From an uncultured Acetatifactor sp. (GTDB lineage Bacteria; Bacillota; Clostridia; Lachnospirales; Lachnospiraceae): DNA of 64,000 nucleotides. The notes under the pieces were generated by a model, which worked only from the letters and a program-made list of their open reading frames with translations, was not told the origin of the DNA and did not search any database. The DNA lies in NCBI GenBank assembly GCA_934394815.1, contig CAKRRD010000001.1, forward strand, positions 224,542-288,541, written 5' to 3'. Shown one piece after another: positions 14,548 to 57,408 of the stretch; the first letter of the stretch is position 1, and each line of letters opens with the position of its first letter. The position numbers were made by a program, and so were the translations under genes.

Positions 14548-14586
14548 AGGGGGGCCACGGGTCATGAGAAAGACGAGGTTATTAAA

Positions 14587-15279: not shown

Positions 15280-15299
15280 TCCCGGAGGGATCGGAGACT

Positions 15300-16949: not shown

Positions 16950-17027
16950 ACCGGAGAAACCGGCAGAACGGAAGGATCCGGAGCGTCGGCAAAAAGATGA
17001 CAAAACGGTAAGGAAGGAAACGATCAT

Positions 17028-17791: not shown

Positions 17792-17835
17792 AAAAGATTT
17801 TTATACGCAGGCTACGGAAAGGCAAGGGAACTATT

Positions 17836-36171: not shown

Positions 36172-36217
36172 ATCCTTATCTATAGCAAAAATGCGCAAGG
36201 CGCAGAACGGAGAAAAA

Positions 36218-37300
36218 ATGAGAACATATCTGGTAACAGGCGGAGCCGGTTTCATCGGTTCCAATTATATTCATTACATGTTTAAGAAATACGATAATGA
36301 AATCCGCATCATCAACGTGGATGCACTGACCTATGCAGGCAATCTGGAGAACCTGAAGGACGTGGAGAAGCGTGAGAACTACACCTTTGTAAAGGCAAAC
36401 ATCTGCGACAAGGAAGCCATCAGCAAAATTTTCGCAGAGAATGATATTGACCGCGTGGTACATTTTGCCGCAGAGAGTCATGTAGACAGAAGTATCCGCA
36501 ATCCGGAGATCTTCGTACAGACCAACGTTCTGGGAACCGCGGTAATGTTAAACTGTGCCAAGGCAGCCTGGGAGCTTCCCGACGGCAACTTTAAGGAAGG
36601 CAAGAAGTTCCTGCATGTTTCTACGGATGAAGTCTACGGATCTCTTCCTGATGATGACAATGCCTTCTTCTATGAGACCACACCCTATGATCCCCACAGC
36701 CCTTACTCCGCAAGTAAGGCAAGTTCGGACATGCTGGTGAAGGCCTATATGGATACCTACCATTTCCCCGCCAACATCACCAACTGCTCTAACAACTACG
36801 GACCTTACCAGTTCCCGGAGAAGCTGATCCCGCTGATCATCAACAATGCACTGCATGGTAAGAAGCTTCCGGTCTACGGTGACGGTAAGAATGTCCGTGA
36901 CTGGCTGTATGTAGAGGATCATGCCAAGGCTATCGACATGGTACAGGAGCAGGGCAGACTGTTCGAGACCTACAACGTGGGCGGACATAACGAGAAGCAG
37001 AACATCGAGATCATCCACATCATTATCGAGACCTTACAGGAAATGCTTCCGGATTCCGATCCCCGCAAGGCGCATATCAATAATGACCTGATCACTTATG
37101 TAGAAGATCGTAAGGGTCACGACAGAAGATACGCCATTGCGCCGGATAAGATCAAGGCAGAGATCGGCTGGTACCCTGAGACCATGTTCAAGGAGGGTAT
37201 CCGCAAGACCATTGCCTGGTACTTCGAGCACGAAGACTGGATGAACAATGTGACCAGCGGTGACTACCAGAAGTACTACAATGAAATGTATGAAAAGTAA
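36218..37300 (+). CDS. rfbB: dTDP-glucose 4,6-dehydratase
   Basis: 360 residues from the ATG at 36218, with CGGAGA just upstream; a longer frame from 36191 lacks that site. The NAD-binding TGGAGFIGSNY is at the N-terminus, HVSTDEVYG holds the catalytic T/D/E, and Y163-S-A-S-K167 is the SDR catalytic pair. It converts dTDP-glucose to dTDP-4-keto-6-deoxyglucose, which feeds both rhamnose synthesis (RfbC) and the WecE-like transaminase at 23409. Codon use looks more optimised than in the membrane GT genes, in line with high expression. Very confident. Confidence 0.95.
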   Translation: MRTYLVTGGAGFIGSNYIHYMFKKYDNEIRIINVDALTYAGNLENLKDVEKRENYTFVKANICDKEAISKIFAENDIDRVVHFAAESHVDRSIRNPEIFVQTNVLGTAVMLNCAKAAWELPDGNFKEGKKFLHVSTDEVYGSLPDDDNAFFYETTPYDPHSPYSASKASSDMLVKAYMDTYHFPANITNCSNNYGPYQFPEKLIPLIINNALHGKKLPVYGDGKNVRDWLYVEDHAKAIDMVQEQGRLFETYNVGGHNEKQNIEIIHIIIETLQEMLPDSDPRKAHINNDLITYVEDRKGHDRRYAIAPDKIKAEIGWYPETMFKEGIRKTIAWYFEHEDWMNNVTSGDYQKYYNEMYEK

Positions 37301-37397: not shown

Positions 37398-38267
37398 ATG
37401 AAAGGAATAATACTGGCGGGAGGCTCCGGAACCAGACTGTATCCCCTGACCAAGGCAATCTCCAAGCAGATCATGCCGGTGTACGATAAACCAATGATTT
37501 ATTACCCCCTGTCAACGCTGATGCTGGCGGATATCAGGGAGGTACTGATCATCTCCACCCCGAGGGATCTTCCGGTATTTAAAGAACTGCTGGGAGACGG
37601 CAGCCAGTTGGGCATGCGTCTGGAGTATGCGGTGCAGGACAAACCCCGCGGACTGGCAGATGCTTTTATCATCGGTGCGGATTTTATCGGTGATGACCGG
37701 GTGGCACTGGTGCTGGGCGACAATATTTTCTATGGACAGAGCTTCTCCAGAGTGCTGCGCACTGTAGCAGCAAGAGAAAAGGGAGCCACCATTTTCGGCT
37801 ATTATGTGCGGGATCCCAGAGAGTACGGTGTCGTGGAATTCGATGAGTCCGGAAAGGCTCTTTCCATCGAGGAAAAGCCCGAACATCCCAAGAGCAATTA
37901 TGCGGTTCCGGGATTGTATTTCTATGACAATGATGTCGTGGAGATCGCGAAGAATGTGAAACCCTCAGCAAGGGGAGAGATCGAGATCACCAGCATCAAC
38001 AACGAGTATCTGAACCGGGGAACCCTGCAGGTAGAGACACTGGGAAGAGGTTTTGCATGGCTGGATACCGGCAATCACGATGCGCTGTTGGATGCGGCAG
38101 ATTTTGTGGCAGCATTCCAGAAGAGACAGGGATTGTATATTTCCTGTATCGAGGAGATTGCATTCAAACGTGGATTTATTGACAGAGAACAACTGCTGAC
38201 ACTGGCGGAGCCGTTACTTAAGACAAATTACGGAAAATATCTGGTAGAGGTAGCCAATGGACTCTAA
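37398..38267 (+). CDS. rfbA: Glucose-1-phosphate thymidylyltransferase
   Basis: 289 residues, preceded by GGAGG. The start [18 protein letters not shown], then [17 protein letters not shown] and [10 protein letters not shown], are the RmlA signature. It makes dTDP-glucose from glucose-1-phosphate and dTTP, the substrate of RfbB; glucose-1-phosphate can come from the phosphoglucomutase at 50462. Its last 11 bases overlap the following GH25 gene. Confidence 0.95.
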
Positions 38268-39576: not shown

Positions 39577-40149
39577 ATGGGTAAGATAACGGTAGAAACC
39601 TGTGAGATTGAAGGGTTGAAAATCATTACGCCTACGGTGTTCGGAGACGCCAGAGGATATTTCATGGAAACCTATAATTACAATGATTTTAAGGCAGCAG
39701 GCATTCCGGAAGTATTTGTACAGGATAACCAGTCTGCTTCCAAGAAAGGTGTGCTGCGGGGACTGCATTTTCAGAAGCATTTTCCGCAGGACAAGCTGGT
39801 AAGAGTGATCCGCGGCGAAGTGTATGACGTAGCGGTGGATCTGCGGGAAGGTTCTAAGACTTTCGGAAAGTGGTACGGTGTACTTCTGTCCGAGGAGAAT
39901 AAGAAACAGTTCTTTATCCCGAAGAATTTTGCCCACGGATTTCTGGTATTGTCCGATTATGCGGAATTCTGTTATAAATGTACCGATTTCTATCATCCCG
40001 ATGATGAGGGCGGTATTGCCTACAATACTCCGGACATCGGTGTAAAATGGCCGATTTCCGAAGGAATGGAACTGATACTTTCCGAGAAAGATACCAAATG
40101 GGGTACTCTGGAGCAGTACATGAAGGAAAAAGAGCATGAAAGTAAGTAA
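39577..40149 (+). CDS. rfbC: dTDP-4-dehydrorhamnose 3,5-epimerase
   Basis: 190 residues. RGLHFQ gives the catalytic H64, and CTDFYHP gives Y139, matching H63 and Y138 of RmlC. GDARGYFMETYN at the start binds the nucleotide sugar. It epimerises dTDP-4-keto-6-deoxyglucose to the L-rhamno form. The last enzyme, RfbD, is not in the window and must be encoded elsewhere if dTDP-L-rhamnose is made. The end overlaps the ABC permease start by 14 bases. Confidence 0.93.
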   Translation: MGKITVETCEIEGLKIITPTVFGDARGYFMETYNYNDFKAAGIPEVFVQDNQSASKKGVLRGLHFQKHFPQDKLVRVIRGEVYDVAVDLREGSKTFGKWYGVLLSEENKKQFFIPKNFAHGFLVLSDYAEFCYKCTDFYHPDDEGGIAYNTPDIGVKWPISEGMELILSEKDTKWGTLEQYMKEKEHESK

Positions 40150-41128
40150 GAAGACGGGCATTGCCCTGTTCGTGACAGCAGCGGTGATCATGGCGGTGCT
40201 TATTGTATTCCACAAAAATCCGGGACCGGCGGCGGATCCGGCACAGGAACTGGCCAAGAAGATCATATCCTGTGTGGTGATCGCGGCCGCCTGTTTCACT
40301 TTTATCCACTGGTATGATAAATTCACCGGACTGCCTGTGGAACTGTTCCAGAACCGCCATCTGATCTGGAAGCTGGCAAAAAATGATTTCAAAAAGAGAT
40401 ATGCGGGTTCTTATCTGGGCGCGGTATGGGCCATGGCACAGCCGGTGGTTACGGTGGCCATGTACTACATTGTTTTTGACAAGATCATGGGCAATACCAG
40501 TACCCCGCTGCGGGAAGGCGTGGAAGTACCCTTTGTATTGTTCCTGACGGCGGGACTGGTACCCTGGTTCTATTTCAGCGAAGCACTGAACAATGGAACC
40601 AATGCCTTGCTGGAATATAATTATCTGGTGAAAAAGGTAGTATTTAAGATCAGTATTCTGCCGATCATCAAGATTATCGCAGCTACCTTTATTCATGTAT
40701 TTTTTGTATGTCTGCTGTTGATCGTGGCAGCGGTTTACGGATATTATCCCACTATATATACGATACAGATCGTGTACTACAGTTTCTGCCTGTTTATTTT
40801 TGTACTGGCACTGAGCTATACAACCTGTGCAGTGGTGGTATTTTTCCGGGATCTGTCCCAGATCATCAGTATCGGATTGCAGATCGGGATGTGGGCGACT
40901 CCTATTTTATGGAATCTGGAGTCTCTGTCCGGTACTTGGGTCACAATCTTAAAGCTGAATCCGCTGGTCTATATCGTCAACGGATACCGCAGTGCTGTTT
41001 ATGAGAGGGAATGGTTCTTCCAGGATTTCTTTTCCACAATGTATTTCTGGATCGTAACCGTAGTATTATTCGGATTGGGAGCCGTTATTTTCAAACGTTT
41101 GAAGGTACATTTCGCAGACGTATTATAA
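40136..41128 (+). CDS. ABC-2 type polysaccharide exporter permease (Wzm/TagG-like)
   Basis: 330 residues. From about residue 75 the family core begins with IWKLAKNDFKKRYAGSYLG and AVWAMAQPVVTVAMYY, followed by six helices, as in Wzm and TagG. The first about 75 residues are an addition with two hydrophobic segments (VTAAVIMAVLIVF and CVVIAAACFTFI), not found in typical members of about 260 residues. It pairs with the ATPase at 42763, although another membrane protein gene lies between. Overlap with rfbC suggests coupled translation. Exports a finished lipid-linked polysaccharide. Confidence 0.88.
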   Translation: MKVSKKTGIALFVTAAVIMAVLIVFHKNPGPAADPAQELAKKIISCVVIAAACFTFIHWYDKFTGLPVELFQNRHLIWKLAKNDFKKRYAGSYLGAVWAMAQPVVTVAMYYIVFDKIMGNTSTPLREGVEVPFVLFLTAGLVPWFYFSEALNNGTNALLEYNYLVKKVVFKISILPIIKIIAATFIHVFFVCLLLIVAAVYGYYPTIYTIQIVYYSFCLFIFVLALSYTTCAVVVFFRDLSQIISIGLQIGMWATPILWNLESLSGTWVTILKLNPLVYIVNGYRSAVYEREWFFQDFFSTMYFWIVTVVLFGLGAVIFKRLKVHFADVL

Positions 41129-41229: not shown

Positions 41230-42756
41230 TTGAAGGGTGCTCGAGAAAAATTCAAAAAAATATGGTTATGGAAGCCTGGGAAACTCCTGCTGGCAGCAGG
41301 ATGTCTGGGACTGCTGCTGTTGACGCTGGTTCCGCTGTTCCGCCTGACGGTCTATGCGGTTCCTTATTATGACGATTACAATTTCGGAAGATTTGCCAGG
41401 ACTGCCATGGAACAGGAACAGACGAAATGGGCAGCTGTCTCCGGCGCACTGGATTGTTCCAGAACCCAGTGGTATGCATGGCAGGGAACGTATTCTTCCA
41501 TTTTCTTCATGACGCTGATGCCGGCAATCTGGGGAGAAAAATACTATTTTCTGGGTCCGGTATTCATTCTGCTGTTGCTGCTTGCGGGGACGATGCTGTT
41601 TACCGGAACCATTCTGCGGAAAGTGTTGCAGCTGGACCGTTGGGACAGTCTGGCCATACAGGCAGTGATCACAGCAGCGGTGTTCATGTTCATATATTCC
41701 GCCCAGAGCGGATTTTACTGGTACAACGGCGGAATCCATTATGTGGGAATGCATGGATTTGCATTGTTGTTTTTGTCTGCAGCCATCTGTCTGGAGCGGG
41801 CAGACGGCAGAACGTCCACAGGACTGCTGTTTACCGCGACGGTACTTCTGGCAATGATTACGGCAGGAAGCAATTTTGTCACGGCACTGCAGGGACTGGT
41901 AAGCCTTTTGTCGGTCCTGCTGGTAAGTGTGGTACTGGAACGTCGGAAAAAGGGCCTGTGGCTGTTACCGGCCACACTGGTATATATCATAGGTTTCGGA
42001 CTGAATGTGGCAGCTCCCGGTAATTCTGTCCGGGCCCGCAGCTATGAGGGATGGGGATACGGTCCTCTGGAAGCTATCGGAAGATCTTTTCCGGAGGCGG
42101 TAAAGCATATTCCGGAGTACACCGGACTGGCGGTACTGACCGTGATGCTCCTGTTGTTTCCCATGATCTGGCAGGCGCTTAAGAGCACCGGCTATCGTTT
42201 CCGTTATCCGGGAGTGGTACTTGCCTGGTCCTTCTGCGTGTATGCCACCGGATATACGCCCAGCCTGTATTCTCTGGGACATGCGGGGCTATCCAGAACA
42301 TTGAATGCGGTGAAGATCACCTATCTGTTGTTATTGTTTTTGAATGAAGTATACTGGTGCGGCTGGCTGCAGCAGAAGCTGCAGGAAAAAGCGGAGCAGA
42401 AAGCGGTACGGAGGCTGTCTGCCTGGAGCGGAGCAGTCGTCTGGGAATTTTATGTGCTCATCGGAGTGGCATTTTTAATGATCTTTCGTGCGTCTCCGAA
42501 TCAGGCCGGGCATTATTCGGCCTACGGAGCGTATTACTATGTGCATACCGGAGAGGCGAACAATTTCCACCAGGAGTATCTGGAGCGTGTGAAGAGACTG
42601 TCGGGAATTGCCAGAAATGTGCATCTGCCCGCCTACCGGTACGAACCGTGGTTTCTGTGCATGGGGGACATCTCGGAAGACGCCAATAATGAAGCGAACC
42701 AGTCTCTGGCCATGTGGTATGGCAAAGACAGCGTGACGCTGATAAGCGAGGAATAA
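41230..42756 (+). CDS. Polytopic membrane protein, probable GT-C-like (possibly DUF6056)
   Basis: 508 residues from a TTG at 41230, with AAAGGG about nine bases upstream; no in-frame ATG is near. After the first helix, YYDDYNFGRF provides acidic residues where GT-C enzymes have them, then SRTQWYAWQGTYSS. VAAPGNSVRARS in the middle and about ten to eleven helices fit a family I recall as DUF6056, unverified. It sits between the exporter permease and ATPase and may modify the exported glycan. Function not proven. Confidence 0.68.
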   Translation: MKGAREKFKKIWLWKPGKLLLAAGCLGLLLLTLVPLFRLTVYAVPYYDDYNFGRFARTAMEQEQTKWAAVSGALDCSRTQWYAWQGTYSSIFFMTLMPAIWGEKYYFLGPVFILLLLLAGTMLFTGTILRKVLQLDRWDSLAIQAVITAAVFMFIYSAQSGFYWYNGGIHYVGMHGFALLFLSAAICLERADGRTSTGLLFTATVLLAMITAGSNFVTALQGLVSLLSVLLVSVVLERRKKGLWLLPATLVYIIGFGLNVAAPGNSVRARSYEGWGYGPLEAIGRSFPEAVKHIPEYTGLAVLTVMLLLFPMIWQALKSTGYRFRYPGVVLAWSFCVYATGYTPSLYSLGHAGLSRTLNAVKITYLLLLFLNEVYWCGWLQQKLQEKAEQKAVRRLSAWSGAVVWEFYVLIGVAFLMIFRASPNQAGHYSAYGAYYYVHTGEANNFHQEYLERVKRLSGIARNVHLPAYRYEPWFLCMGDISEDANNEANQSLAMWYGKDSVTLISEE

Positions 42757-42762: not shown

Positions 42763-44103
42763 ATGCAGGAAAAGAAAAAACTGGCCATTGCAGTCGATAA
42801 TGTCCAGAAGATCTACAAATTATATGACAAGCCTTCGGACCGGATGAAGGAAGCTTTCGGCTTTGGCAGGAAGACGAAGCATAAGCTTCACTATGCCCTG
42901 AAGGGTGTGGATATGAAGATCTATCAGGGAGAGACGGTGGGCATCATCGGTACCAACGGCTCCGGTAAATCCACGATCCTGAAGATCATTACCGGTGTAC
43001 TGAATCCGACCTCCGGAAGAGTGCTGGTAAACGGACGAATCTCCGCTCTGCTGGAGCTGGGTGCCGGATTCAACATGGAATATAACGGGATCGAGAATGT
43101 GTACCTAAACGGCACCATGATGGGATTTTCCGAAAAAGAGATCGAGGCGAAGCTGCCGGAGATCTTAAGCTTTGCGGATATCGGAGACTATGTCTATCAG
43201 CCGGTGAAGACGTATTCCAGCGGTATGTTTGTCCGACTGGCTTTTGCGGTGGCCATCAACATTGAACCGGAGATCCTGATCGTAGATGAGGCGCTGAGTG
43301 TCGGCGACGTATTTTTCCAGGCGAAATGTTATCATAAATTCGAAGAATTCAAAAAGATGGGTAAGACTATCGTGTTCGTCAGCCACGATCTGAGCAGTAT
43401 CAGCAAATACTGTGATCGTGTCTATCTGCTGAATCAGGGAAATATTCTGGGGGAAGGCAGTCCCAAGGCCATGATCGACACTTACAAGCGGGTGCTGGTA
43501 GGGCAATATGACGGCCCGGAGAGTGTAGGAGAAGAGACGGCCAGTCTGCTGGATGACGAGGATCTGCAGAGAGCGGCAGCCAGAAAGGCGGACGAAAAGG
43601 GAACGGATCCGGCGGAGGCTTCCATGGAGGCAAAGGGCCAGAATCCCAACGCGCTGGAATATGGCACGAAGCAGGCGCAGATCGAAGAATTTTACATTAC
43701 GGATGACCGTGGAGTTCCCACCAATGCGATCCTGAAGGGCAGTATGTTCACGATTCATATGAAGGTCCGGTTTCTGGAGCATATTCCGGCACCTATTTTT
43801 GCATTTTCCGTAAAAAATGTTATCGGCGTGGAGATCACCGGTACGAATACCATGATTGAGAAGGCTTTCCTGGACAGCGTGGAACCGGGAGAGGTGAAGA
43901 ATGTGACTTTTACCCAGAAGATGAATTTGCAGGGCGGAGAATATCTGCTGTCTCTGGGAGTGACCGGCTACAATCAGGATACCTTTGAGGTATACCACAG
44001 ACTGTATGATGCCCTGAATATTACAGTAGTATCGGACAAGAACACAGTAGGCTATTATGATATGGATTCCGAAACAAAAGTATGGGATGCGGAGGAGAAG
44101 TAA
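42763..44103 (+). CDS. ABC exporter ATPase with C-terminal glycan-recognition domain (Wzt-like)
   Basis: 446 residues. The ATPase domain (1-245) has Walker A GTNGSGKS at 63-70, the Wzt/TagH-type signature YSSGMFVRLAFA and Walker B ILIVDEALSVGD. After an acidic linker, residues 306-436 (from AQIEEFYITDD to TVVSDKN) form a beta-rich domain like the C-terminal domain of E. coli O9a Wzt. In that system the domain binds the modified non-reducing end of the O chain and permits export only of capped chains. The next gene encodes a methyltransferase-kinase that could make such a cap. Works with the permease at 40136. Confidence 0.88.
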   Translation: MQEKKKLAIAVDNVQKIYKLYDKPSDRMKEAFGFGRKTKHKLHYALKGVDMKIYQGETVGIIGTNGSGKSTILKIITGVLNPTSGRVLVNGRISALLELGAGFNMEYNGIENVYLNGTMMGFSEKEIEAKLPEILSFADIGDYVYQPVKTYSSGMFVRLAFAVAINIEPEILIVDEALSVGDVFFQAKCYHKFEEFKKMGKTIVFVSHDLSSISKYCDRVYLLNQGNILGEGSPKAMIDTYKRVLVGQYDGPESVGEETASLLDDEDLQRAAARKADEKGTDPAEASMEAKGQNPNALEYGTKQAQIEEFYITDDRGVPTNAILKGSMFTIHMKVRFLEHIPAPIFAFSVKNVIGVEITGTNTMIEKAFLDSVEPGEVKNVTFTQKMNLQGGEYLLSLGVTGYNQDTFEVYHRLYDALNITVVSDKNTVGYYDMDSETKVWDAEEK

Positions 44104-44106
44104 GGA

Positions 44107-46179
44107 ATGACAGAGACCATCGGGAAGATCACACTGAATCTGGATAAATATCCCGGCGAGGATTATTATTGTGACGGCAGTGTGGAGGACGAGATCTTAG
44201 ACATTGTAAAAAAATACAGTACGGTGGAATATGACCGGATCATTGCGGAGCGGAAAAGCTGGCCGATCCTGTATCACCTGTCGGCTCTCCGGGAAAATAT
44301 CGTGGACTTTCTTCCCATACAGAAAACGGACAAGGTGCTGGAAGTGGGCAGCGGCTGCGGAGCCATTACGGGAGCACTGGCAAGGAAAGCCGGGGAAGTG
44401 ACCTGCGTGGATCTTTCAAAGAAGCGCAGCCTGATCAATGCCTACCGTCACAGCGGGTGTGAGAATGTGACGATCCATGTGGGAAATTTTACGGATGTGG
44501 AGCCGGAACTGCCCGTGGAGTATGACTATATCTGTCTGATTGGTGTTTTTGAGTACGGACAGGCTTACATAGGCGGCAGGACGCCTTATGAGGATTTCCT
44601 GAAGATCCTGCAGAAGCATCTGGCACCGGGCGGCCGGATCGTCATCGCTATCGAAAATAAATACGGACTGAAATATTTTGCCGGCTGTAAGGAAGATCAT
44701 CTGGGCAGCTGGTTCTCCGGTATCGAGAATTATCCGGAAGGCGGCGTGGTGCGCACTTTTTCCCGGAAAAAGCTGGAGCGGATCTTTGATACCTGTGGCG
44801 TGGGAGAACGCAGCTTTTATTATCCGTACCCCGATTATAAATTCATGACCACGGTCTATTCCGATGCCTATCTTCCGGGACGGGGAGAACTGTCTAACAA
44901 TCTGCGTAATTTTGACCGGGACAGAATGCTGTTATTTGATGAGAAAAGCGCCTTTGACGGCATGGTGGAGGAAGGACTTTTTTCAGTATTTTCCAACTCT
45001 TACATGGCGGTGATCGGAGCACCGCTTGCTCTGAAATATGCCAGATATTCCAATGACCGCGCAGAAAACTTCCGGATCCGGACGGAGATCCAGCAGGATG
45101 AAAAAGGTGGTAAGACGGTCCGGAAATATCCGCTGTCCAAAGAGGCGGAAGCCCATGTACGTCATATGGCGGAAGCGTATGAAAAACTGAAAGACCGCTA
45201 TGCGGGAAGCCGCCTGGATGTCAATGTCTGTCATTTGGGAGAAGAGAACGGCATTCCTTATGCGGAGTTTGCATTTGTAGCGGGCAGACCGTTGTCAGAG
45301 CTGATGGATGAGTGCCTGGACAGACGGGACGTGGAAGGGTTCCACAAACTGTTTGCGGAGTATCTGGAGCGGGTAGGCTACGGGGAGGATGTCCCGGTGG
45401 CAGACTTCGATCTGATCTTTGCCAATATTCTGGTGGATGGAGACCACTGGACGCTGATTGATTATGAATGGACGTTTGACCGCCCCATAGAGACCAGAGC
45501 ACTGGCTTTCCGGGCAGTCTATTGTTATGTGCTGGAAGATGAGAGACGGAATGCACTGGAACTGGACCGCATTCTGGATCGTCTGGGTATCACGGAAAAC
45601 GAGGCCAGACAGTACAGAGAGCAGGAGATGGAATTCCAGAAATACGTCACCGGGCAGAAGCTGTCCATGGGAGAGATCCGGAATCTCCTGGGCGGTGAGG
45701 TCTATAAGCCTACGGAATGGATCGGTCGTTTCCGCCAGACGGAAGGAGAACTCCGGGTGCAGATCTATGAAGACAAGGGGCAGGGATTTTCCGAGGAAAA
45801 TTCCTATTTCCCGGAGAACGTCTATGCAGAGGAGAAGCAGGCGGAATTTACGGTGCATTTTGACGGCAATGTGCATTATTTACGGCTGGATCCCGCCATG
45901 TGTGCCTGCGTGTGCAAGATCCGGGAACTGACCATGAACGGCCAGCCGGTTCCGGTGCAGGAGAAAAAAATTGTTACCACCAACGGCAAAATCTTAAAAT
46001 CCGCTGACGGTGCGGAGCATCCCAGTCTGGTATTCCCCACGGAGGATCCGAACCTGACGATCCGGGTGGAAGCACTGGACAGAAGGGCAGACAATGTCCT
46101 GACTGTAAAAATGGAGATCGTGCAGATCCCTCTTGCAGTGGCAAAAGATATGGCGGGAGCAGTGAGAAAGCTCTTTTAA
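44107..46179 (+). CDS. Methyltransferase-kinase fusion resembling the chain terminator WbdD
   Basis: 690 residues, three bases after the Wzt-like gene. Residues 60-220 form a class I SAM methyltransferase with motif I VLEVGSGCG at 77-85. Residues 300-480 resemble a kinase fold: possible ATP lysine K340 in VRKYPL, following EAEAHV helix, hinge-like EFAFVAGRPLSEL, then D435-x4-N440 and D452 in LIDYEW, at the spacing of the catalytic and metal sites of APH-type kinases. Residues about 530-690 are a beta-rich region. E. coli O8/O9 WbdD (about 700 residues) also joins a methyltransferase to a kinase and caps O chains. A C-terminal coiled coil as in WbdD is not evident. Domain calls good; the capping role is inferred. 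Confidence 0.75.
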   Translation: MTETIGKITLNLDKYPGEDYYCDGSVEDEILDIVKKYSTVEYDRIIAERKSWPILYHLSALRENIVDFLPIQKTDKVLEVGSGCGAITGALARKAGEVTCVDLSKKRSLINAYRHSGCENVTIHVGNFTDVEPELPVEYDYICLIGVFEYGQAYIGGRTPYEDFLKILQKHLAPGGRIVIAIENKYGLKYFAGCKEDHLGSWFSGIENYPEGGVVRTFSRKKLERIFDTCGVGERSFYYPYPDYKFMTTVYSDAYLPGRGELSNNLRNFDRDRMLLFDEKSAFDGMVEEGLFSVFSNSYMAVIGAPLALKYARYSNDRAENFRIRTEIQQDEKGGKTVRKYPLSKEAEAHVRHMAEAYEKLKDRYAGSRLDVNVCHLGEENGIPYAEFAFVAGRPLSELMDECLDRRDVEGFHKLFAEYLERVGYGEDVPVADFDLIFANILVDGDHWTLIDYEWTFDRPIETRALAFRAVYCYVLEDERRNALELDRILDRLGITENEARQYREQEMEFQKYVTGQKLSMGEIRNLLGGEVYKPTEWIGRFRQTEGELRVQIYEDKGQGFSEENSYFPENVYAEEKQAEFTVHFDGNVHYLRLDPAMCACVCKIRELTMNGQPVPVQEKKIVTTNGKILKSADGAEHPSLVFPTEDPNLTIRVEALDRRADNVLTVKMEIVQIPLAVAKDMAGAVRKLF

Positions 46180-46212: not shown

Positions 46213-48246
46213 TTGAGCATTCGGACATCAGTGAAGCAGCTACTTGTCAGACAACAGGATAAAAAATATGAGACAGAACTGGCAAAGCTTCGGGTCACCT
46301 ATGCCCAGTGGGTGTCAGAGCGGGAAGAAGCCATGGCCGAAGCAGGAAAAAACCAGGGCGAAGGATGTGTGGGTCTTGCGGAATTCGTGATCTACCGGCA
46401 GCAGAGAGGACAGCTGGCGGACAATGCCACAGAACGGATCAACGCTTATTTTGTAAATCATCCGGAGGCAGAGATTGTCTACGGAGATGAGGATCTGCTC
46501 TCGGAAAGCGGAGAACGTTGTATTCCCTGGTTCAAGCCCTGCTGGTCCCCGGATCTGTACCGTGGATACTTTTATGTGGGAAGTGTGGTGGCGGTACGGA
46601 GCAGACTGTTACAAAAAGCGGGAGAACCGGTGGCAGTAACGGAAGGTGAGAGCACCGGGAAGGAGATTCCGTTCGCGAAAGCGGAAGAGATCCGTCCGCT
46701 GATGGATCGGCTGTTTCTGGCGGCCGGAGGCTTTGAAAGGGGCTGCCATACCATCGGTCATATGGAAGAAGTATTGTTTCACGGGGAATTTGGCACCTCC
46801 GGGATCGGTATTCAGGGTCCGGAGGAGACTGTCCGGGAGAACGAGGCGGCGGAACTGACACCTTGGGAGGAGTACCGGACGGCAGCGGAATCTGCAAAGC
46901 TGTCTGTAGAGTTGGCGGACAAGGCAGCAAAAAGTGCCGGAGATACCTTTTCCGGGGAACTGTTGGTCTCTGTGATCATTCCCTCCAGGGACAATCCGGA
47001 GGTGCTTGCAAAGTGCCTGACGTCGCTGACGAAGCGTCCCCAGGGCAGTGTTCCGGTGGAGATCCTGCTGGTGGACAACGGCAGTAATGAGGAAAACAGG
47101 AAAAAGACGGAAACGCTGGCAGAACAGATCCGGGCAGAAGGAACGCAGATCCGATACCTTTACGAGCCTGCGGAATTTAATTTTTCCGCCATGTGCAACC
47201 GTGGTGCGGCACTGGCAGAGGGAAAGCTTTTACTGTTTTTGAATGATGATATCGAGTTATGTCAGAATGACTGGCTGGACAAAATGGTGGCCAGAGCCAT
47301 GCATCCCTATGTGGGCAGTGTGGGCCTAAAGCTGTATTATCCGGATTCCGTGAAAATCCAGCATGATGGCATCGTCAATCTGCCGGTGGGACCGGTGCAT
47401 AAGCTGCAATTTCTGGAAGATGACAGAAGCTATTATTTCGGGCGGAACCGTTTTCCACAGGATTGTGTGGCGTCGACCGGTGCCTGTCTGCTGCTGCGGA
47501 CAGAGGTATTCCGGGAGGCCGGAGGATTCAGCGAAGCCCTCAGAGTGGCTTACAATGACGTGGATCTGGGCTTCCGGCTGGTGGAAATGGGCTATTACAA
47601 TGTGGTATGGAATGACAGATTTGCTTATCACCATGAATCCTTAAGCCGGGGAAGTGATGAAAGCCCGGAGAAGATGCAGCGGCTGGTCCGGGAGAGAGAA
47701 CTGCTCTACCAGATGCATCCGCAGTTTCGCGGGGAAGATCCCTTCTACCCGGTGGGACTGAACAGAGAAGGACTGGACAGCCGGGTGGTTCCGGCTTATC
47801 TGACGGATCGGAATATTTTGCAGGAGCCTCTCTGGCAGGCTGGACTTCCCGGAGGGGAAGCCTTACAGAATGTCCGCAGGGATGACTGCCTGATGGCGAG
47901 AGTGGAGACAGCGGGGCCGGAGCGGATCCAGGGGTACAGTGTGATCCTGGGAGACGACAATGCCTGCTATGAGAGATATCTGCTGCTGCTTCCCTGTGGA
48001 GAAACGCAAGGTCAGGGGGTGTGGTCCCTGAAGCTGCTGCCCGCCTACCGGCAGGAACTGGAAGAGAACCTTCCGGATCAGAAAAATGTGGCTTTGGGCG
48101 GTTTCTGTGTCCGCAGGGAAGGAGAGCAGCTGCCGGTGGGAAATTATACCATCGCTGTCCTTGCGGTGAATCGGGTCAGCAAGCTGAAGCTGTGGAATAC
48201 TACGGGAAAATATCTGACCGTAGAACTTCCGGCAGCAAACCAATAG
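46213..48246 (+). CDS. Multi-domain GT2 glycosyltransferase with a truncated N-terminal GT-A half
   Basis: 677 residues from TTG at 46213, with AAGGAGA nine bases upstream. Residues about 60-215 (IVYGDEDLLSE, WFKPCWSPDLYRG) match the second half of a GT-A domain only; the nucleotide-binding first half and D-x-D are missing. A full GT-A domain follows from about residue 252: VSVIIPSRDNPE, LLVDNGSNEE, FLNDDIEL, and HHESLSRG. The final about 110 residues are a beta-rich domain. Tandem GT2 proteins of this type build rhamnan-like chains. Only the second domain should be catalytic. It follows the capping-like enzyme in the exporter operon. Confidence 0.85.
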   Translation: MSIRTSVKQLLVRQQDKKYETELAKLRVTYAQWVSEREEAMAEAGKNQGEGCVGLAEFVIYRQQRGQLADNATERINAYFVNHPEAEIVYGDEDLLSESGERCIPWFKPCWSPDLYRGYFYVGSVVAVRSRLLQKAGEPVAVTEGESTGKEIPFAKAEEIRPLMDRLFLAAGGFERGCHTIGHMEEVLFHGEFGTSGIGIQGPEETVRENEAAELTPWEEYRTAAESAKLSVELADKAAKSAGDTFSGELLVSVIIPSRDNPEVLAKCLTSLTKRPQGSVPVEILLVDNGSNEENRKKTETLAEQIRAEGTQIRYLYEPAEFNFSAMCNRGAALAEGKLLLFLNDDIELCQNDWLDKMVARAMHPYVGSVGLKLYYPDSVKIQHDGIVNLPVGPVHKLQFLEDDRSYYFGRNRFPQDCVASTGACLLLRTEVFREAGGFSEALRVAYNDVDLGFRLVEMGYYNVVWNDRFAYHHESLSRGSDESPEKMQRLVRERELLYQMHPQFRGEDPFYPVGLNREGLDSRVVPAYLTDRNILQEPLWQAGLPGGEALQNVRRDDCLMARVETAGPERIQGYSVILGDDNACYERYLLLLPCGETQGQGVWSLKLLPAYRQELEENLPDQKNVALGGFCVRREGEQLPVGNYTIAVLAVNRVSKLKLWNTTGKYLTVELPAANQ

Positions 48247-48297
48247 AACAGAGGCATTTCCTGCAAAATGGCAGCAGATGCATCACGGAGGAGACAT

Positions 48298-50364
48298 ATG
48301 TCAGAGAGTAACACGGAGATCAATTATAAGGAAGCTTACGAGAGAGAGCACGAGAAATGTGCGGATCTGGCGGACAAAATTGTAGTGCTGGAATCGGAAA
48401 AGGAAGATCTGCAGTTCAAGCTAGACCGGATCAAGAAGAATAAATTCTGGAAGGCTACAGGCCCGGCGAGAAGTGTGATCCATTTTGCCCAGAGACAGAA
48501 GGAGCGTCTGTCCCATTGCGGGGGACCGAAGGACATCCTGCGCAAGCTCCGCAACAAGAGCCACCAGAAGAGCCTGATGGAATCTTACGGCACCGGAAGC
48601 TTTCCCGATGCGGAGCAGAGGAAAAGGGAAGAAGAGACCGTTTTCCCTTATATGCCGAAGATCAGTATTCTGGTGCCTCTGTGGAATAACAGGAGAGAAT
48701 TCCAGATTCAGATGCTGGACTGCGTCATGAACCAGACCTATCAGAACTGGGAACTGTGTCTGGCGGACGGTTCCGATGCGGAGCATGCCTATATCGAAGA
48801 ACTCTGCAGGGAGTATGCGGCGAAGGCAGACGGCCGTATTGTATATAAGCATCTGGACCATAACGGCGGCATCTCTTATAATACCAACGAGTGTTACAAA
48901 CTGGCTGCGGGAGAATATATCGGACTGTTTGACCAGGATGATATTCTGCACCCTTCCGTATTGTTCGAGTATGTGAAGGCCATCAATGAAAAGGGCGCGG
49001 ATTATCTGTACTGCGATGAAACGACTTTTCAGGAAAATAATATCAATAAAATGCTGACCATGCACTTTAAGCCGGATTATGCACCGGATAATCTGCGGGC
49101 CAACAATTACATCTGTCATTTCAGTGTCTTTTCCAGAAAACTTCTGGAGGGAGAGGAACTGTTCCGCACGGCATTCGACGGTGCACAGGATCACGATATG
49201 ATCCTGCGTCTGACAGACAGAGCGGAAAACATCGTACATGTACCCAGGCTGATGTATTACTGGAGAAGCCATGCGGGCAGTACCGCGGCCAGCATCGACG
49301 CGAAGCCCTATGCCATTGAGGCGGCAAAGGGAGCCGTGGCGGATCATCTGAAAAAGCACGGTTTCAAACATTTCCAGATCACCAGTACCAGGGCCTGTGC
49401 CACCATCTTCCGGATCCGTTACCAGATCCTGGGAGACCCGAAGATTTCTATTGTCATTGCCAACAGGGATCATGCGGAAGATCTGAAGCGATGCATTACC
49501 TCCATTCAGAAGAACAGCACCTGGAGCAATTACGAGATCATCGTGGTAGAAAATAACAGTACCACACCGGAGATTAAGGACTATTATTCCCAGCTGCTGG
49601 GATTATCCGGCAAGGATTCCTATGTGGAGCGGTGCAAGCTGCATACGGTCTGCGGCCATGACGGCGGCATTCTGCACAGTGAGGATGGCCGGATCTCCGT
49701 AGTGACCTATCACGGAGACTTTAATTATTCCGCAGTGAATAATCTGGGCGTATCTTACGCCACGGGGGAATATATCCTGCTGCTGAATAACGATACGGAA
49801 GTCATCACTGCCAACTGGATGGAGGAGATGCTGATGTATGCCCAGCGGGAAGATGTGGGAGCTGTAGGTGCCAAGCTGTACTATGCGGACAAGACGATCC
49901 AGCATGCCGGTGTGGTCATCGGGCTGGGGGCACATCGCACGGCAGGCCATACCCATTACCGCATTCCGGTACAGAACCTTGGGTACATGGGACGCCTGTG
50001 CTATACCCAGAATGTTACGGCAGTGACAGGTGCCTGTCTGCTGGTGAAAAAGAAGCTGTATGAGCAGGTGGGAGGTCTGGATGAAAGCTTTGTGATCTCC
50101 CTGAATGATGTGGATTTCTGTCTGAAACTGCGGGATCTGGGGCTGTTAAATGTATGGACGCCTTTTGCGGAGCTGTATCATTATGAGTCCATTTCCAGAG
50201 GACTGGACGATCAGGGCGAGAAGGCGGAGCGTTACAATAAAGAATCCGGACTTTTCCGCGAAAAATGGAAAGCACAGCTGGAGGCGGGAGATCCCTATTA
50301 TAATCCGAATTTTTCACTGGACCGCAGTGATTATGCTCTGAAGGATCCGGTTAGCGGACGTTAA
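48298..50364 (+). CDS. Tandem-domain GT2 glycosyltransferase
   Basis: 688 residues from the ATG at 48298, with GGAGGAGA upstream. A coiled-coil-like N-terminus (about 10-55) is followed by GT-A domain one (ISILVPLWNNR, FDQDD as metal site, FKPDYAPDNL) and GT-A domain two from about residue 385 (ISIVIANRDHAED, LLNNDTEV, AGHTHYRI). Both domains look complete, unlike its neighbours at 46213 and 52271. Such two-domain enzymes usually add two sugars, or alternate linkages, in rhamnose-rich polymers. Last gene of the exporter operon. Confidence 0.87.
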   Translation: MSESNTEINYKEAYEREHEKCADLADKIVVLESEKEDLQFKLDRIKKNKFWKATGPARSVIHFAQRQKERLSHCGGPKDILRKLRNKSHQKSLMESYGTGSFPDAEQRKREEETVFPYMPKISILVPLWNNRREFQIQMLDCVMNQTYQNWELCLADGSDAEHAYIEELCREYAAKADGRIVYKHLDHNGGISYNTNECYKLAAGEYIGLFDQDDILHPSVLFEYVKAINEKGADYLYCDETTFQENNINKMLTMHFKPDYAPDNLRANNYICHFSVFSRKLLEGEELFRTAFDGAQDHDMILRLTDRAENIVHVPRLMYYWRSHAGSTAASIDAKPYAIEAAKGAVADHLKKHGFKHFQITSTRACATIFRIRYQILGDPKISIVIANRDHAEDLKRCITSIQKNSTWSNYEIIVVENNSTTPEIKDYYSQLLGLSGKDSYVERCKLHTVCGHDGGILHSEDGRISVVTYHGDFNYSAVNNLGVSYATGEYILLLNNDTEVITANWMEEMLMYAQREDVGAVGAKLYYADKTIQHAGVVIGLGAHRTAGHTHYRIPVQNLGYMGRLCYTQNVTAVTGACLLVKKKLYEQVGGLDESFVISLNDVDFCLKLRDLGLLNVWTPFAELYHYESISRGLDDQGEKAERYNKESGLFREKWKAQLEAGDPYYNPNFSLDRSDYALKDPVSGR

Positions 50365-52252: not shown

Positions 52253-52270
52253 ATAAACGTGGAGGTATCT

Positions 52271-53695
52271 GTGGCAAAGCTGAGTAGGGCAAACCTTAAG
52301 AAAACTCTATATTATCTGCAACGTAACGGCCTGAGGGAAACCTGGATCTCTGTAAGGGAACGCCTGACAGAGACAGACCGCTATTTTTATGTACCCTGTT
52401 CGGAGGAGACGCTGGAACAGCAGAGTGCCAGAAAATGGGACAAGCCCATTACCTTCAGTATTGTGGTACCCCTGTACCGTACGCCGGAAAAGTATCTGGA
52501 AAGAATGATAACGAGTGTTATCACACAGAGCTATCCCCATTGGGAACTGATCCTGGCGGATGCCACGGAGGATCAAAGTGTGGAGGAAACGCTGAAAAAA
52601 CAGGGATTTCTGACAATACAGACAGAGGAAGACCGTGCAATCATTGCAGCGGATCCGAGGATCCACTATGTGCACCTTACGGAGAATGCCGGCATCGCAG
52701 CCAATACCAATCAGGCACTTTCTTATGCGAAGGGAGAATATATCGGCCTGCTGGATCATGATGATGTTCTGACACCGGATGCTCTGTATGAAATGGCGGA
52801 TGCCATGGCAAAGGCGGATGACAGAGGTGTCAGAACTGCTTTTGCCTATTCCGACGAGGATAAATGCGACGGAGAAGAGACAAAATATTACGATCCGAAC
52901 CATAAAGAAGACTTTAATTACGATTTGATCCTCAGCAATAATTATATTTGTCATTTTCTGGTCATGGAGGCAGGTCTGATGAAGAAGCTGCAATTCCGGC
53001 CGGAGTGTGACGGAGCCCAGGACTATGATCTGGTGCTGCGCGCCGTGGCAGAGGTGCTTGCCGCAGACGGGCGTTCCGGGGAAGAACGGATTCTCCATAT
53101 CCCGAGAGTGCTGTATCACTGGCGATGCCATGAGGCATCCACGGCGGCCAACCCGCACAGTAAGAAATACGCCTATGAGGCGGGGCTTCGTGCATTACAG
53201 GATCATGCCATGGAATGTGGGATTCCTGCAACAGCGGAAGAGACCAGGCATGTGGGATTTTATCGTTTACAATATAAAGACGTATTACAGGAAAGACCGG
53301 ATGTGGCTGCTGTGGGCGGCCGGATACTGTCCGGGAAGAGACACGGCCGGATCAGCGGCGGCAGAATGACTGCGGATGGCAAAATCCTCTATGAAGGACT
53401 GCCGGAGGGATTCGGAGGCTATCTTCACAGAGCGGAGCTGTCCCAGGATGCGGAGGCCTTAGATCTCCGCTGTCTCAGGATCCAGCCTGTCTGCAGGAAA
53501 ATATTTGAAAAAATTGTGGGAGTGCCTTATACGGAAGTGGTGAGGGAGCCGGGACAGCAGCCGGTGTTTGATGTCACCACATTGCCTGCGGGAGCAGACA
53601 TCCGGCAGTTAAGCCTGCGATTATCGGAAGCACTGCGCACACAGGGAAGATTACTTTATCTGCCGGAATACCCCGAGAGGTGGAACACATTATGA
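52271..53695 (+). CDS. GT2 glycosyltransferase with a degenerate second domain
   Basis: 474 residues from GTG at 52271, with GGAGG at 52261-52265; an in-frame GTG at 52259 precedes that site and is less likely. One complete GT-A domain covers about 60-330 (FSIVVPLYRTPE, LDHDD, YSDEDKCD, YHWRCHEAST). Residues about 335-410 (VAAVGGRILSGK, then GYLHRAELSQ) match only the later half of a second GT-A domain, without its nucleotide-binding half. It looks like a tandem GT2 that lost part of domain two. No promoter is visible between the terminator at 52214-52252 and the start, so expression may depend on readthrough. Confidence 0.83.
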   Translation: MAKLSRANLKKTLYYLQRNGLRETWISVRERLTETDRYFYVPCSEETLEQQSARKWDKPITFSIVVPLYRTPEKYLERMITSVITQSYPHWELILADATEDQSVEETLKKQGFLTIQTEEDRAIIAADPRIHYVHLTENAGIAANTNQALSYAKGEYIGLLDHDDVLTPDALYEMADAMAKADDRGVRTAFAYSDEDKCDGEETKYYDPNHKEDFNYDLILSNNYICHFLVMEAGLMKKLQFRPECDGAQDYDLVLRAVAEVLAADGRSGEERILHIPRVLYHWRCHEASTAANPHSKKYAYEAGLRALQDHAMECGIPATAEETRHVGFYRLQYKDVLQERPDVAAVGGRILSGKRHGRISGGRMTADGKILYEGLPEGFGGYLHRAELSQDAEALDLRCLRIQPVCRKIFEKIVGVPYTEVVREPGQQPVFDVTTLPAGADIRQLSLRLSEALRTQGRLLYLPEYPERWNTL

Positions 53696-54714
53696 GAGAA
53701 GTAACAGTCGTTATACCGAATTACAATGGGATGAAATATCTGCCGGAATGTATGACATCCTTGTGCAGGGGGCAGGAAAAGGCACCGGAATATGAAGTGC
53801 TGATCATAGACAATGGTTCTTCCGACGGCAGTGTGGAATATCTGGAAAGCGGATGGTGCTGTGAAAAAGAAGTACAGGTACCGGCAGAACAGGTTACAAA
53901 ACCGCAGGTGCGTCTGATCGCACTGCCGGAAAATACCGGCTTCTGTCATGCGGTGAATCTGGGAATCCGGGAGGCCAGGAGCCCTTATGTGATCCTGTTA
54001 AACAACGATACTAAGGTGGAGGCGGGCTTTATCAGAGGACTGTATGATGCCATCCGGCAGAATGAGAAGATCTTTTCTGTCAGCGCGAAGATGCTTATGT
54101 GGGATAAGCCGGAACTGCTGGATGATGCAGGAGACCGCTATTGTGTTCTGGGGTGGGCCTATTCCCGGGGAAAAGGACGGCCTGCCGCAAATTATGACAA
54201 GAATGTCAGCGTATTTTCCGCCTGTGGCGGGGCGTCGATTTACAGGCGCCGGGTGTTTGAAGAGATCGGTTATTTCGATGAGGCCCATTTTGCCTATCTG
54301 GAGGATCTGGATATCGGGTATCGCGCCCGGATCTATGGCTACGAGAACCGGTACGAGCCATCAGCGGTCGTGCTGCATTATGGCAGTGCCTCCACGGGAT
54401 CCCGGTATAATTCCCGGAAAACGGAACTTTCTTCTGCCAATAATATCTATGTCATCGGCAAAAACATGCCGCTGTTGCAATGGATTTTGAATCTGCCCTT
54501 TTTTGTGCTCGGATTTGGTATAAAATTTCTGTTTTTTTGCAAGAAGAGAATGGGAAAACTATATCTGAAGGGACTCTTCGCGGGATGGAAAAGGACGGCC
54601 GGATCTGTGGGAAAACAGAATAAAGTCCGCTTTCATTGGGGCCATCTGTGGAATTATGTGAAGATCCAGTGGCAACTATACCTGAATGTTTTTCGAATTC
54701 TTATGAAATCTTAA
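53692..54714 (+). CDS. GT2 rhamnosyltransferase-like glycosyltransferase (WbbL-like)
   Basis: 340 residues from the ATG at 53692, which overlaps the previous stop (ATGA). The GT-A domain has VTVVIPNYNGMKYL, VLIIDNGSSDGS, LLNNDTKVE and FAYLEDLDIGYRA, the pattern of WbbL-type rhamnosyltransferases. A hydrophobic C-terminal stretch (about 262-285) may anchor it. It could use the dTDP-rhamnose expected from the rfb genes. Donor inferred from family. Confidence 0.85.
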   Translation: MREVTVVIPNYNGMKYLPECMTSLCRGQEKAPEYEVLIIDNGSSDGSVEYLESGWCCEKEVQVPAEQVTKPQVRLIALPENTGFCHAVNLGIREARSPYVILLNNDTKVEAGFIRGLYDAIRQNEKIFSVSAKMLMWDKPELLDDAGDRYCVLGWAYSRGKGRPAANYDKNVSVFSACGGASIYRRRVFEEIGYFDEAHFAYLEDLDIGYRARIYGYENRYEPSAVVLHYGSASTGSRYNSRKTELSSANNIYVIGKNMPLLQWILNLPFFVLGFGIKFLFFCKKRMGKLYLKGLFAGWKRTAGSVGKQNKVRFHWGHLWNYVKIQWQLYLNVFRILMKS

Positions 54715-54767: not shown

Positions 54768-54814
54768 GAAATCGTTAAAAAGAAGCTTTTCAGACTTAGA
54801 GATTGGGTGACCGT

Positions 54815-56238: not shown

Positions 56239-57408
56239 ATGGCAGCAAATTCTAACAACAATGGCGGAAGAAGACCTTCCGGAAACGGACAGAGACCGGC
56301 AGGCAACGGCCAGCGCACGAACACCGGCAGCGGACAGAAGAGAATGTCCGCAAAACAGAGGGAAGCCAAAAAGAGAAGAAAGGTTATCATCTTTGGTGTA
56401 GAGATTGTAGTGATCCTGGTCATGGTGGCAGTACTGTATCTGGTAATGACCCATACCAGCAACGAAGGACCCAAGGTAACGGTTCTGGAGACCGAAGAAC
56501 TCCGGATTCCCGAAGAGGTTCAGCAGGACGAGGCCATGAAGGGCTATATGAACATCGCATTGTTTGGTGTGGATGCAACGAAGGAAAGCCAGCTGTATAA
56601 GGGCAGCCGAAGCGACAGTGTCATGATCGCCAGCATCAATATGGACACCGGTGATATCAAGCTGGTCAGCGTATACCGTGACACCTACCTGAATATCGGT
56701 ACCGATTCCTACCAGAAATGTAACGCTGCTTATTCCTATGGTGGTGCAGAACAGGCGGTTAAGATGCTGAACATGAATCTGGATATGGATATTACGAACT
56801 TTGTGACCGTAGGCTACAAGGGACTGAGCGAAGTCATCGACGGTCTGGGTGGTATCTACATCGATGTGGACTCTGAGGAAATCAAACACATCAACAACTA
56901 TCAGATCGGTATTGCCGAGGTTCTGAAGTGTGATTATACCCCTGTAACAGAGACCGGTCTGCAGCTGTTAAACGGTCTGCAGGCGACTGCTTACTGCCGT
57001 ATCCGTTATACCGCAGGTAATGACTTCAAGCGTGCTGCCCGTCAGCGTGAAGTCATTCAGGCCATCGAAGATCAGGCAAAGAAAGCAGATTATGCAACTC
57101 TGTCGAAGGTATTCAACAGTGCCATCGACGATATTTACACCAGTCTGGATTCCAAGGATATTCTGGATCTGTTAAGCAATATTGCAAACTATCGCATTGT
57201 GGACGAGGGTGGTTTCCCTGAGGAGAACATGCGTGATACCGGTAATATCGGCGCCAAGGGAAGCTGCGTTATTCCTGTAAATCTGGAGAGCAATGTTGTA
57301 TGGCTCCATCAGTTCCTGTTCGATGATGCAGGCTACACTGTTACCGACAGCGTTAAGGAATACAGCAACAAGATCGAAGCCGATACCTCACCGTATCTGG
57401 GAAGATAG
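56239..57408 (+). CDS. LytR-CpsA-Psr (LCP) family glycopolymer ligase
   Basis: 389 residues, preceded by AAGGAGA. A basic, Asn/Gly-rich cytoplasmic tail (1-47) is followed by one TM helix (about 48-70) and an LCP domain: NIALFGVD, GSRSDSVMIASIN, VSVYRDTYL, GGAEQAVKMLN, YKGLSEVIDGLGGI, then RQREVIQAI. LCP proteins move polyprenyl-linked glycopolymers onto peptidoglycan. It follows the priming transferase by 17 bases, so start and final attachment of the chain are probably co-expressed. Family very sure. Confidence 0.92.
   Translation: MAANSNNNGGRRPSGNGQRPAGNGQRTNTGSGQKRMSAKQREAKKRRKVIIFGVEIVVILVMVAVLYLVMTHTSNEGPKVTVLETEELRIPEEVQQDEAMKGYMNIALFGVDATKESQLYKGSRSDSVMIASINMDTGDIKLVSVYRDTYLNIGTDSYQKCNAAYSYGGAEQAVKMLNMNLDMDITNFVTVGYKGLSEVIDGLGGIYIDVDSEEIKHINNYQIGIAEVLKCDYTPVTETGLQLLNGLQATAYCRIRYTAGNDFKRAARQREVIQAIEDQAKKADYATLSKVFNSAIDDIYTSLDSKDILDLLSNIANYRIVDEGGFPEENMRDTGNIGAKGSCVIPVNLESNVVWLHQFLFDDAGYTVTDSVKEYSNKIEADTSPYLGR

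What the first reader, a model, noticed from the sequence alone, without database searches (positions are those of the whole stretch)
42763..46179. Wzt-like ATPase with glycan-binding tail next to a WbdD-like methyltransferase-kinase in a Gram-positive
Seen: the ATPase has a C-terminal beta domain (residues 306-436). The next gene, three bases away, encodes a SAM methyltransferase (motif 77-85) joined to a kinase-like fold with K340, D435, N440 and D452 in the right order and spacing. Known: in E. coli O8/O9, WbdD caps the O chain with methyl or methyl-phosphate, and the Wzt C-terminal domain selects capped chains for export. Inferred: the same length-control and export logic may operate here for a wall-linked glycan, with the kinase-like domain followed by a beta region rather than the coiled coil of WbdD.
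Basis: partly seen in the sequence, partly recalled or inferred. Interest (0 to 1): 0.75.

Follow-up and report, generated by a model that had tools for sequence, protein, structure and literature searches.

The report
Glycan-capping methyltransferase-kinase beside Wzt transporter
A bacterium of or near the gut family Lachnospiraceae carries an enzyme that probably caps a growing wall sugar chain with phosphate and methyl, so that the neighbouring transporter knows the chain is finished; it looks closer to a chain terminator of Klebsiella serotype O7 than to the E. coli enzyme WbdD.

The parts
42763..44103 (+). Wzt: ABC ATPase with Wzt_C tail (446 aa)
   Evidence: best solved sequence matches are 8dku (recalled as the Aquifex O-antigen exporter), TarH/TagH and RfbE
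43651..44064 (+). Wzt_C domain, residues 297-434
   Evidence: Pfam 144.6 bits; best solved sequence match of the tail 2r5o, E 1.1e-6
44107..46179 (+). methyltransferase-kinase-beta protein (690 aa), proposed chain terminator
44107..45006 (+). methyltransferase domain, residues 1-300; SAM motif residues 77-85 at 44335-44361
45022..45741 (+). kinase domain, about residues 306-545 including a helical C-terminal part; K340, D435, N440, D452
45409..45411 (+). D435, proposed catalytic base
   Evidence: identical in 133 of 133; aligns with D443 of P. asturiensis protein P0124
45754..46125 (+). beta domain, residues 550-673, with R593-x-D595-P596
   Evidence: secondary structure; hhalign to the Pseudomonas beta region 61.6%, E 7.7e-5
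46129..46176 (+). conserved C-terminal helix, residues 675-690 (PLAVAKDMAGAVRKLF), possibly membrane- or partner-binding (inference)
   Evidence: helical moment 0.50
40136..41128 (+). Wzm: ABC-2 type permease
   Evidence: Pfam ABC2_membrane 56.5 bits, cut-off 26.9
41230..42756 (+). DUF6056 membrane protein, perhaps a GT-C type transferase (inference); found in 37 of 80 loci
36191..37300 (+). rmlB-like NAD-dependent dehydratase (name assigned from Pfam and context)
   Evidence: same order in related loci
37398..38267 (+). rmlA-like nucleotidyl transferase
39577..40149 (+). rmlC, dTDP-4-dehydrorhamnose 3,5-epimerase
46213..48246 (+). GT2 protein
48268..50364 (+). tandem GT2 protein, relative of the GT2 part of a fused terminator
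   Evidence: 36% identity to residues 727-1276 of the fused protein in L122
50462..52183 (+). phosphoglucomutase family
52259..53695 (+). GT2
53680..54714 (+). GT2
54803..56221 (+). polyprenyl-phosphate sugar transferase (Bac_transf), probable initiating enzyme
56239..57408 (+). LytR-CpsA-Psr family, probable wall ligase

Best explanation
44107-46179 encodes a bifunctional chain terminator of the kind found in the K. pneumoniae O7 ORF6 N-terminus. On a polyprenol-linked, rhamnose-containing chain in the cytoplasm, its APH-like kinase phosphorylates the non-reducing terminal sugar (most likely rhamnose), and its methyltransferase methylates that phosphate. The capped chain can no longer be extended; the Wzt_C domain of 42763-44103 binds the cap, Wzm-Wzt exports the chain, and the LCP enzyme links it to the wall. 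The beta domain probably holds the glycan (CBM-like). Shown here: domains, invariant catalytic residues, predicted kinase fold, homology to Gram-negative relatives, genetic linkage to extended Wzt. Inferred: acceptor sugar, order of reactions, chemistry of the cap, export gating, length control.
Against: K340, invariant in Lachnospiraceae, is H or Y in the 8 Pseudomonas proteins aligned (C. braakii keeps K), and C. braakii has E for D452. No coiled coil is modelled in this protein, although the O7 paper says that all its orthologues have one. The beta-domain link is weak (61.6%). Foldseek TM-scores are low. The true ORF6 O7 sequence was not held, so the tie rests on residue numbers in a relative. 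Wzt and enzyme could be linked only by common descent of one cluster, and the 125-bit cut was set after seeing the scores. 8 of 61 contigs with the gene have no Wzt_C downstream-paired with it: among them G324, where a 121-bit Wzt_C lies 1.8 kb on the other side, and G377, whose genome has no Wzt_C. L123 has a fused relative beside a short 258-aa Wzt; L119 shows no Wzt and L120 only a weakly matching ABC protein in the 20 kb fetched. No rmlD was recognised among the window ORFs scanned.
Confidence: 0.74

Rival explanations
1. It is a Gram-positive WbdD orthologue: eukaryotic-like kinase, coiled-coil ruler lost or replaced.
For: Same order methyltransferase then kinase, same neighbour type; the weak sequence matches of the kinase profile are to protein kinases, as WbdD's own kinase resembles eukaryotic kinases (PMC3482155, abstract and part 1 of the Results).
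Against: VIA ranks aminoglycoside phosphotransferases and Bud32/PRPK first, and WbdD is not in the 50 rows shown (absence is not exclusion). No chain named WbdD among the sequence matches shown (32 of 32, 60 of 106, 37 of 37). Domain-by-domain homology to the O7-type family.
Confidence: 0.06
2. The enzyme adds phosphate and methyl to internal or side-chain sugars and is a decorating enzyme without a role in termination; Wzt_C recognises something else.
For: No cap is known here for any Lachnospiraceae glycan; a few relatives lie without a CBM-type Wzt nearby.
Against: Close linkage to one class of Wzt_C; the Wzt_C domains described in the passages read bind capped termini (PMC9445017; PMC11231755).
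Confidence: 0.13
3. Only one of the two activities is real: a methyl-only cap as with WsaE of Geobacillus, the kinase fold being a structural or glycan-binding relic, or a phosphate-only cap.
For: WsaE of a Gram-positive makes a 2-O-methyl rhamnose cap beside Wzm-Wzt (PMC2943079 passages). I did not identify a glycine-rich loop in the kinase part. K340 varies in the Pseudomonas relatives.
Against: D435, N440 and D452 and the SAM-motif glycines identical in 133 of 133 sequences; the kinase is kept even where it is a separate gene.
Confidence: 0.07

Closest known systems
K. pneumoniae O7 ORF6 N-terminal region (methyltransferase, AmiN-like kinase, Ig-like CBM, coiled coil, then GT2s), PMC11231755
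   Same: Domain order; SAM-site residues and catalytic Asp at matching places through P. asturiensis P0124; rhamnose and ABC-exporter context
   Different: Separate protein, not fused to GT2 modules; no coiled coil modelled; Gram-positive; LCP gene instead of LPS ligation. The ORF6 sequence itself was not compared
E. coli O9a WbdD, PMC3482155 (abstract and part 1 of Results read)
   Same: Methyltransferase followed by a kinase; role beside an extended Wzt
   Different: WbdD has a eukaryotic-like kinase and a C-terminal coiled coil, and caps polymannose; polymerase recruitment at its C-terminus is from PMC11231755 passages
Geobacillus stearothermophilus WsaE (S-layer glycan), PMC2943079 (passages read)
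   Same: Gram-positive, Wzm-Wzt, rhamnose glycan, methyl cap proposed to stop growth and be bound by Wzt
   Different: No kinase mentioned in the passages; methyl on O-2 of rhamnose; fused to two rhamnosyltransferase domains
Aquifex aeolicus Wzm-Wzt with carbohydrate-binding domain, PMC9445017 (passages read)
   Same: Cap-reading domain fused to the NBD; 8dku, recalled as this transporter, is the best solved match to residues 9-246 of the window Wzt
   Different: 3-O-methyl cap on mannose or rhamnose without phosphate; Gram-negative

Membership tests
WbdD | methyltransferase and kinase in one chain | tested here: met
WbdD | eukaryotic-type kinase domain most like WbdD | tested here: inconclusive
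   APH and Bud32-like chains rank first; WbdD not among the 50 rows shown, which does not exclude it
WbdD | C-terminal coiled coil | tested here: not met
   residues 552-673 modelled with strands; the only helix after 548 is 676-685, or 676-689 in the fragment model
WbdD | 3-phosphorylation then methylation of terminal mannose | not testable with these tools
   needs enzyme assay
O7 ORF6-type terminator | SAM-site residues Y28, Y66, G91, G93, E112, Y158 | tested here: met
   align through P0124 to Y21, Y56, G81, G83, D102, Y150; identical in 133 of 133 except D102 (104 D, 29 E)
O7 ORF6-type terminator | APH-like kinase with catalytic Asp | tested here: met
O7 ORF6-type terminator | Ig-like CBM after the kinase | tested here: inconclusive
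   beta domain present; hhalign 61.6%, E 7.7e-5; its fold was not searched alone
O7 ORF6-type terminator | coiled coil after these domains (stated for all orthologues in the paper) | tested here: not met
   a crude heptad scan marks no stretch of residues 545-690
O7 ORF6-type terminator | methylphosphate on O-3 of terminal rhamnose | not testable with these tools
   needs enzyme assay and NMR
CBM-type Wzt | ABC NBD plus Wzt_C | tested here: met
   ABC_tran 80.8 bits (cut-off 25), Wzt_C 144.6 bits (cut-off 30.4)
CBM-type Wzt | binds capped glycan terminus | not testable with these tools
   needs binding assay
WsaE-type methyl terminator | methyltransferase fused to two rhamnosyltransferase domains | tested here: not met
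   the 690-aa protein has no GT2 Pfam match; GT2s are separate genes

The most novel reading that the evidence does not exclude
Gut Lachnospiraceae widely end a wall-linked rhamnose glycan with a phosphate-methyl cap made by a terminator that lacks the coiled-coil ruler; length would then be set by the terminator's own glycan-binding beta domain, its C-terminal helix and competition with the separate GT2 polymerase. I saw no such mode of length control, for LPS or for Gram-positive wall glycans, in the listings of nine paper searches or in the passages read.
Probability: 0.33. Interest if true: 0.7.

Novelty: new variant of a known kind. Interest (0 to 1): 0.5.

Why it matters
How rhamnose wall glycans of Gram-positive bacteria get their length, and how their ABC exporters know that a chain is finished, is little understood (own knowledge). 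If the reading is right, about half of the sampled genomes of this family (58 of 120) have a capping step that gates export, with residues (D435, D452) that can be tested. The cap would sit at the outer end of a surface glycan. Ruminococcus gnavus, which I recall as belonging to the same family, has a glucorhamnan that a review calls pro-inflammatory in vitro (PMC10112845, passages); whether that organism has this gene was not tested.

Tried and rejected
WbdD as direct template: dropped for the reasons given; its absence from the lists is not by itself evidence, as those lists are cut. The published AmiN (6sul) match was likewise not among the rows shown.

Full-model fold search shows only SAM enzymes, as one domain fills the list; so the 300-690 part was folded alone.

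Pfam gives nothing over cut-off in residues 300-690 of the window protein; among the 66 aligned members there are scattered weak matches (best: ArsR in 11 of 66, E 0.00016), which I take for chance. NCBIfam shows only methyltransferase-region matches in the 25 of 39 rows listed. The beta domain against Wzt_C by hhalign: 0.2%, no relation shown.

A crude heptad scan for coils discriminates poorly: L121, L122 and P. asturiensis do not stand clear of their shuffles although heptad-like repeats are visible by eye in the first two. I use it only to say that nothing is marked in the tail of the window protein. The idea that the ruler moved to the start of GT 48268-50364 got no support from it.

Literature: Mann, Kimber and Whitfield 2019 (10.1093/glycob/cwz066), a survey of terminators and Wzt CBMs cited in PMC11231755, is not held. 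It may already list Gram-positive cases; I have not read it. Searches bearing on prior Gram-positive methyltransferase-kinase terminators; no title or abstract start listed, and no passage read, describes one. Papers seen: PMC11231755 (section 11 whole, else passages), PMC3482155 (abstract, Results part 1), PMC2943079, PMC9445017, PMC10112845 and PMC12220298 (passages only; the last had nothing on caps).

Rows dropped: A1 took 133 of 137 sequences left after an 88% identity filter of 198 (L031, L010, L005 and L013 left out). A3 took 58 of the 60 locus rows of A1 plus the window and 7 Bacillota rows. Regex for the kinase motif in Pseudomonas relatives: 101 of 120 match; of the 19 misses, the 5 printed keep D, N and DxEW but lack the P. 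In one search, rows short in a region were dropped and the number left on the Pseudomonas side was not printed.

The 125-bit cut between two groups of Wzt_C scores was set after seeing the gap between 134.3 and 121.

No whole genome is held for the window. The scan of genome contigs kept 80 of 588 loci, all fairly close relatives, so their synteny is partly shared descent.
Full report
The observation. The two ORFs, their coordinates and the three-base gap are as stated. The first is an ABC ATPase (ABC_tran 80.8 bits) with a Wzt_C domain at residues 297-434 (144.6 bits). Among solved sequences the whole protein is nearest to 8dku (residues 9-246, E 4.5e-80; recalled as the Aquifex O-antigen exporter), and its tail to 2r5o (E 1.1e-6; recalled as the E. 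coli O9a Wzt tail). The second protein has Pfam methyltransferase matches over cut-off between residues 60 and 230 and nothing over cut-off after residue 300. K340, D435, N440 and D452 are at the stated places.

More than chance. A search of 5.8 billion proteins scored 7997 candidates and found 4307 relatives, of which 120 are listed. In an alignment of 133 sequences, the window and 132 relatives at 58-88% identity, all four residues are identical in every row. In 66 rows of the kinase part, seven of them other Bacillota forms at 17-38% identity, K340, D435, N440, D452, E454, W455 and R469 are invariant, and so are R318 and T326.

What it is related to. The closest described system that I found is not WbdD. 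PMC11231755 (section 11, both parts) describes K. pneumoniae O7 ORF6: a methyltransferase whose nearest solved structure was CgnL, a kinase resembling AmiN with catalytic D441, an Ig-like CBM, a coiled coil, then GT2 modules. It puts methylphosphate on O-3 of the terminal rhamnose; D441A abolishes phosphorylation in vitro, and in vivo gives high-molecular-weight antigen but no detectable exported LPS. The paper lists orthologues in alpha- and gammaproteobacteria and cyanobacteria; the words Firmicutes and Bacillota do not occur in its main text. I did not hold the ORF6 sequence. A plasmid search with the window protein found 3 records: Pseudomonas asturiensis (27% over residues 21-596), Citrobacter braakii (27% over 21-520) and a partial Deinococcus match. 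In the P. asturiensis protein P0124, Y28, Y66, G91, G93, E112 and Y158 carry exactly the residue types and numbers published for ORF6, and its catalytic Asp is D443 against D441. By eye it goes on with a coil-like stretch and two GT2-type modules, and GT2 Pfam domains are listed for its relatives. Profile comparison of the window family (133 rows) with P0124 and its relatives (at most 121 rows) gives 100% (E 1e-48) for the methyltransferase, 97.8% (E 1.2e-12) for the kinase and 61.6% (E 7.7e-5) for the beta domain; five control pairs of other domains give at most 0.4%. K340 is H or Y in the 8 Pseudomonas proteins aligned and K in C. braakii, which has E for D452. In the Citrobacter record rmlBACD genes and an IS630 transposase precede an ABC permease, an ABC ATPase, the homologue and two glycosyltransferases.

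Context. The window cluster is rmlB, rmlA, a GH25 gene, rmlC, Wzm, DUF6056, Wzt, the enzyme, two GT2 proteins, a phosphoglucomutase-family gene, two GT2s, a polyprenyl-P sugar transferase and an LCP gene. Of the 80 loci fetched, the nearest is from Lachnospiraceae bacterium GAM79 (87% over 11 kb). Of these 80 loci, 78 have Wzt upstream (the two without, L031 and L077, lie on contigs of 3,965 and 5,132 bases), 75 of these 78 Wzt frames are at least 400 aa, 73 of 78 lie within 400 bases, 73 of 80 have Wzm, 71 an rml gene, 57 the tandem GT2 downstream. Many loci are cut by contig ends.

Association. In 120 genomes of the family, 58 have the gene (E up to 1e-15) and 75 a Wzt_C match, 74 over cut-off; 57 have both, one (G377) the gene alone, 18 Wzt_C alone, 44 neither (Fisher p 7e-17). 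Wzt_C scores fall in two groups, which I cut at 125 bits after seeing them: of 59 above, 53 have the gene on the same strand within 8 kb downstream; of 33 below, none, but in G324 a 121-bit domain has the gene 1.8 kb on its other side. 8 of 61 gene-bearing contigs have no Wzt_C paired in this way, and 6 of the 59 high-scoring domains have no gene; some of these are probably contig breaks. Common descent inflates such a p value. Against this, the pair survives rearrangement: a GT gene inserted between them (L052, L063, L070), methyltransferase and kinase as two genes (L117, L118), and longer fused proteins (L121, L122, L123). Exceptions: L123 has a short Wzt, L119 shows none, L120 only a weakly matching ABC protein. 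In 299 genomes drawn from the phylum, 114 match at E 0.001 or better, mostly in the methyltransferase part alone, and 9 at 1e-15 or better, so the gene is concentrated in this family.

Mechanism. Shown: the parts, conserved residues, fold predictions, homology and linkage. Inferred from the O7 enzyme and from Wzt work (PMC9445017 passages): phosphorylation of the terminal sugar, methylation of the phosphate, end of growth, recognition by Wzt_C, export by Wzm-Wzt, attachment by LCP. A Gram-positive precedent for a methyl-only cap next to Wzm-Wzt exists in WsaE (PMC2943079 passages); [quoted passage not shown] Here too no ruler is visible: the tail is a beta domain and a conserved amphipathic-looking helix.

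What stays open. The cap chemistry, the acceptor and the length control are untested. The true ORF6 sequence and the 2019 survey of terminators were out of reach, so I do not claim that Gram-positive members are unreported, only that the listings of nine paper searches (named under Tried and rejected) showed none.

Noticed in passing
38257-39546 and 33126-36134: Two GH25 muramidase-like proteins; one lies between rmlA and rmlC and has a like-placed relative in many of the 80 loci (not counted), the other has an acidic tyrosine-rich N-terminal repeat (read by eye) and a choline-binding repeat.
   Followed up: no
10644-18909: Nonulosonate-like genes: GT52 family, cytidylyltransferase, acetyltransferase and NeuB family, suggesting a second, sialic-acid-like surface glycan in the same window.
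   Followed up: no
41230-42756: DUF6056 membrane protein between Wzm and Wzt is found in only 37 of 80 loci, in L053 between Wzt and the enzyme; a side-chain glycosyltransferase that comes and goes is my guess.
   Followed up: partly
L117 8533-10633, L118 7783-10261: Methyltransferase and kinase encoded by two separate neighbouring genes in clusters with Wzm-Wzt.
   Followed up: partly
L121 8953-12735, L122 6608-11275, L123 9328-13458: Bacillota relatives of 1260, 1555 and 1376 aa: after the methyltransferase-kinase part no beta-domain motif aligns, and heptad-like repeats follow (by eye; above shuffles in the crude scan only in L123); in L122 tandem GT2 modules come next.
   Followed up: partly
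44107-46179, residues 675-690: Conserved C-terminal amphipathic-looking helix, perhaps a membrane or polymerase contact, as the O7 paper tells of the end of WbdD.
   Followed up: no
six high-scoring Wzt_C domains without the gene nearby (G320, G335, G349, G367, G382, G417): These may be contig breaks or clusters with another terminator.
   Followed up: no
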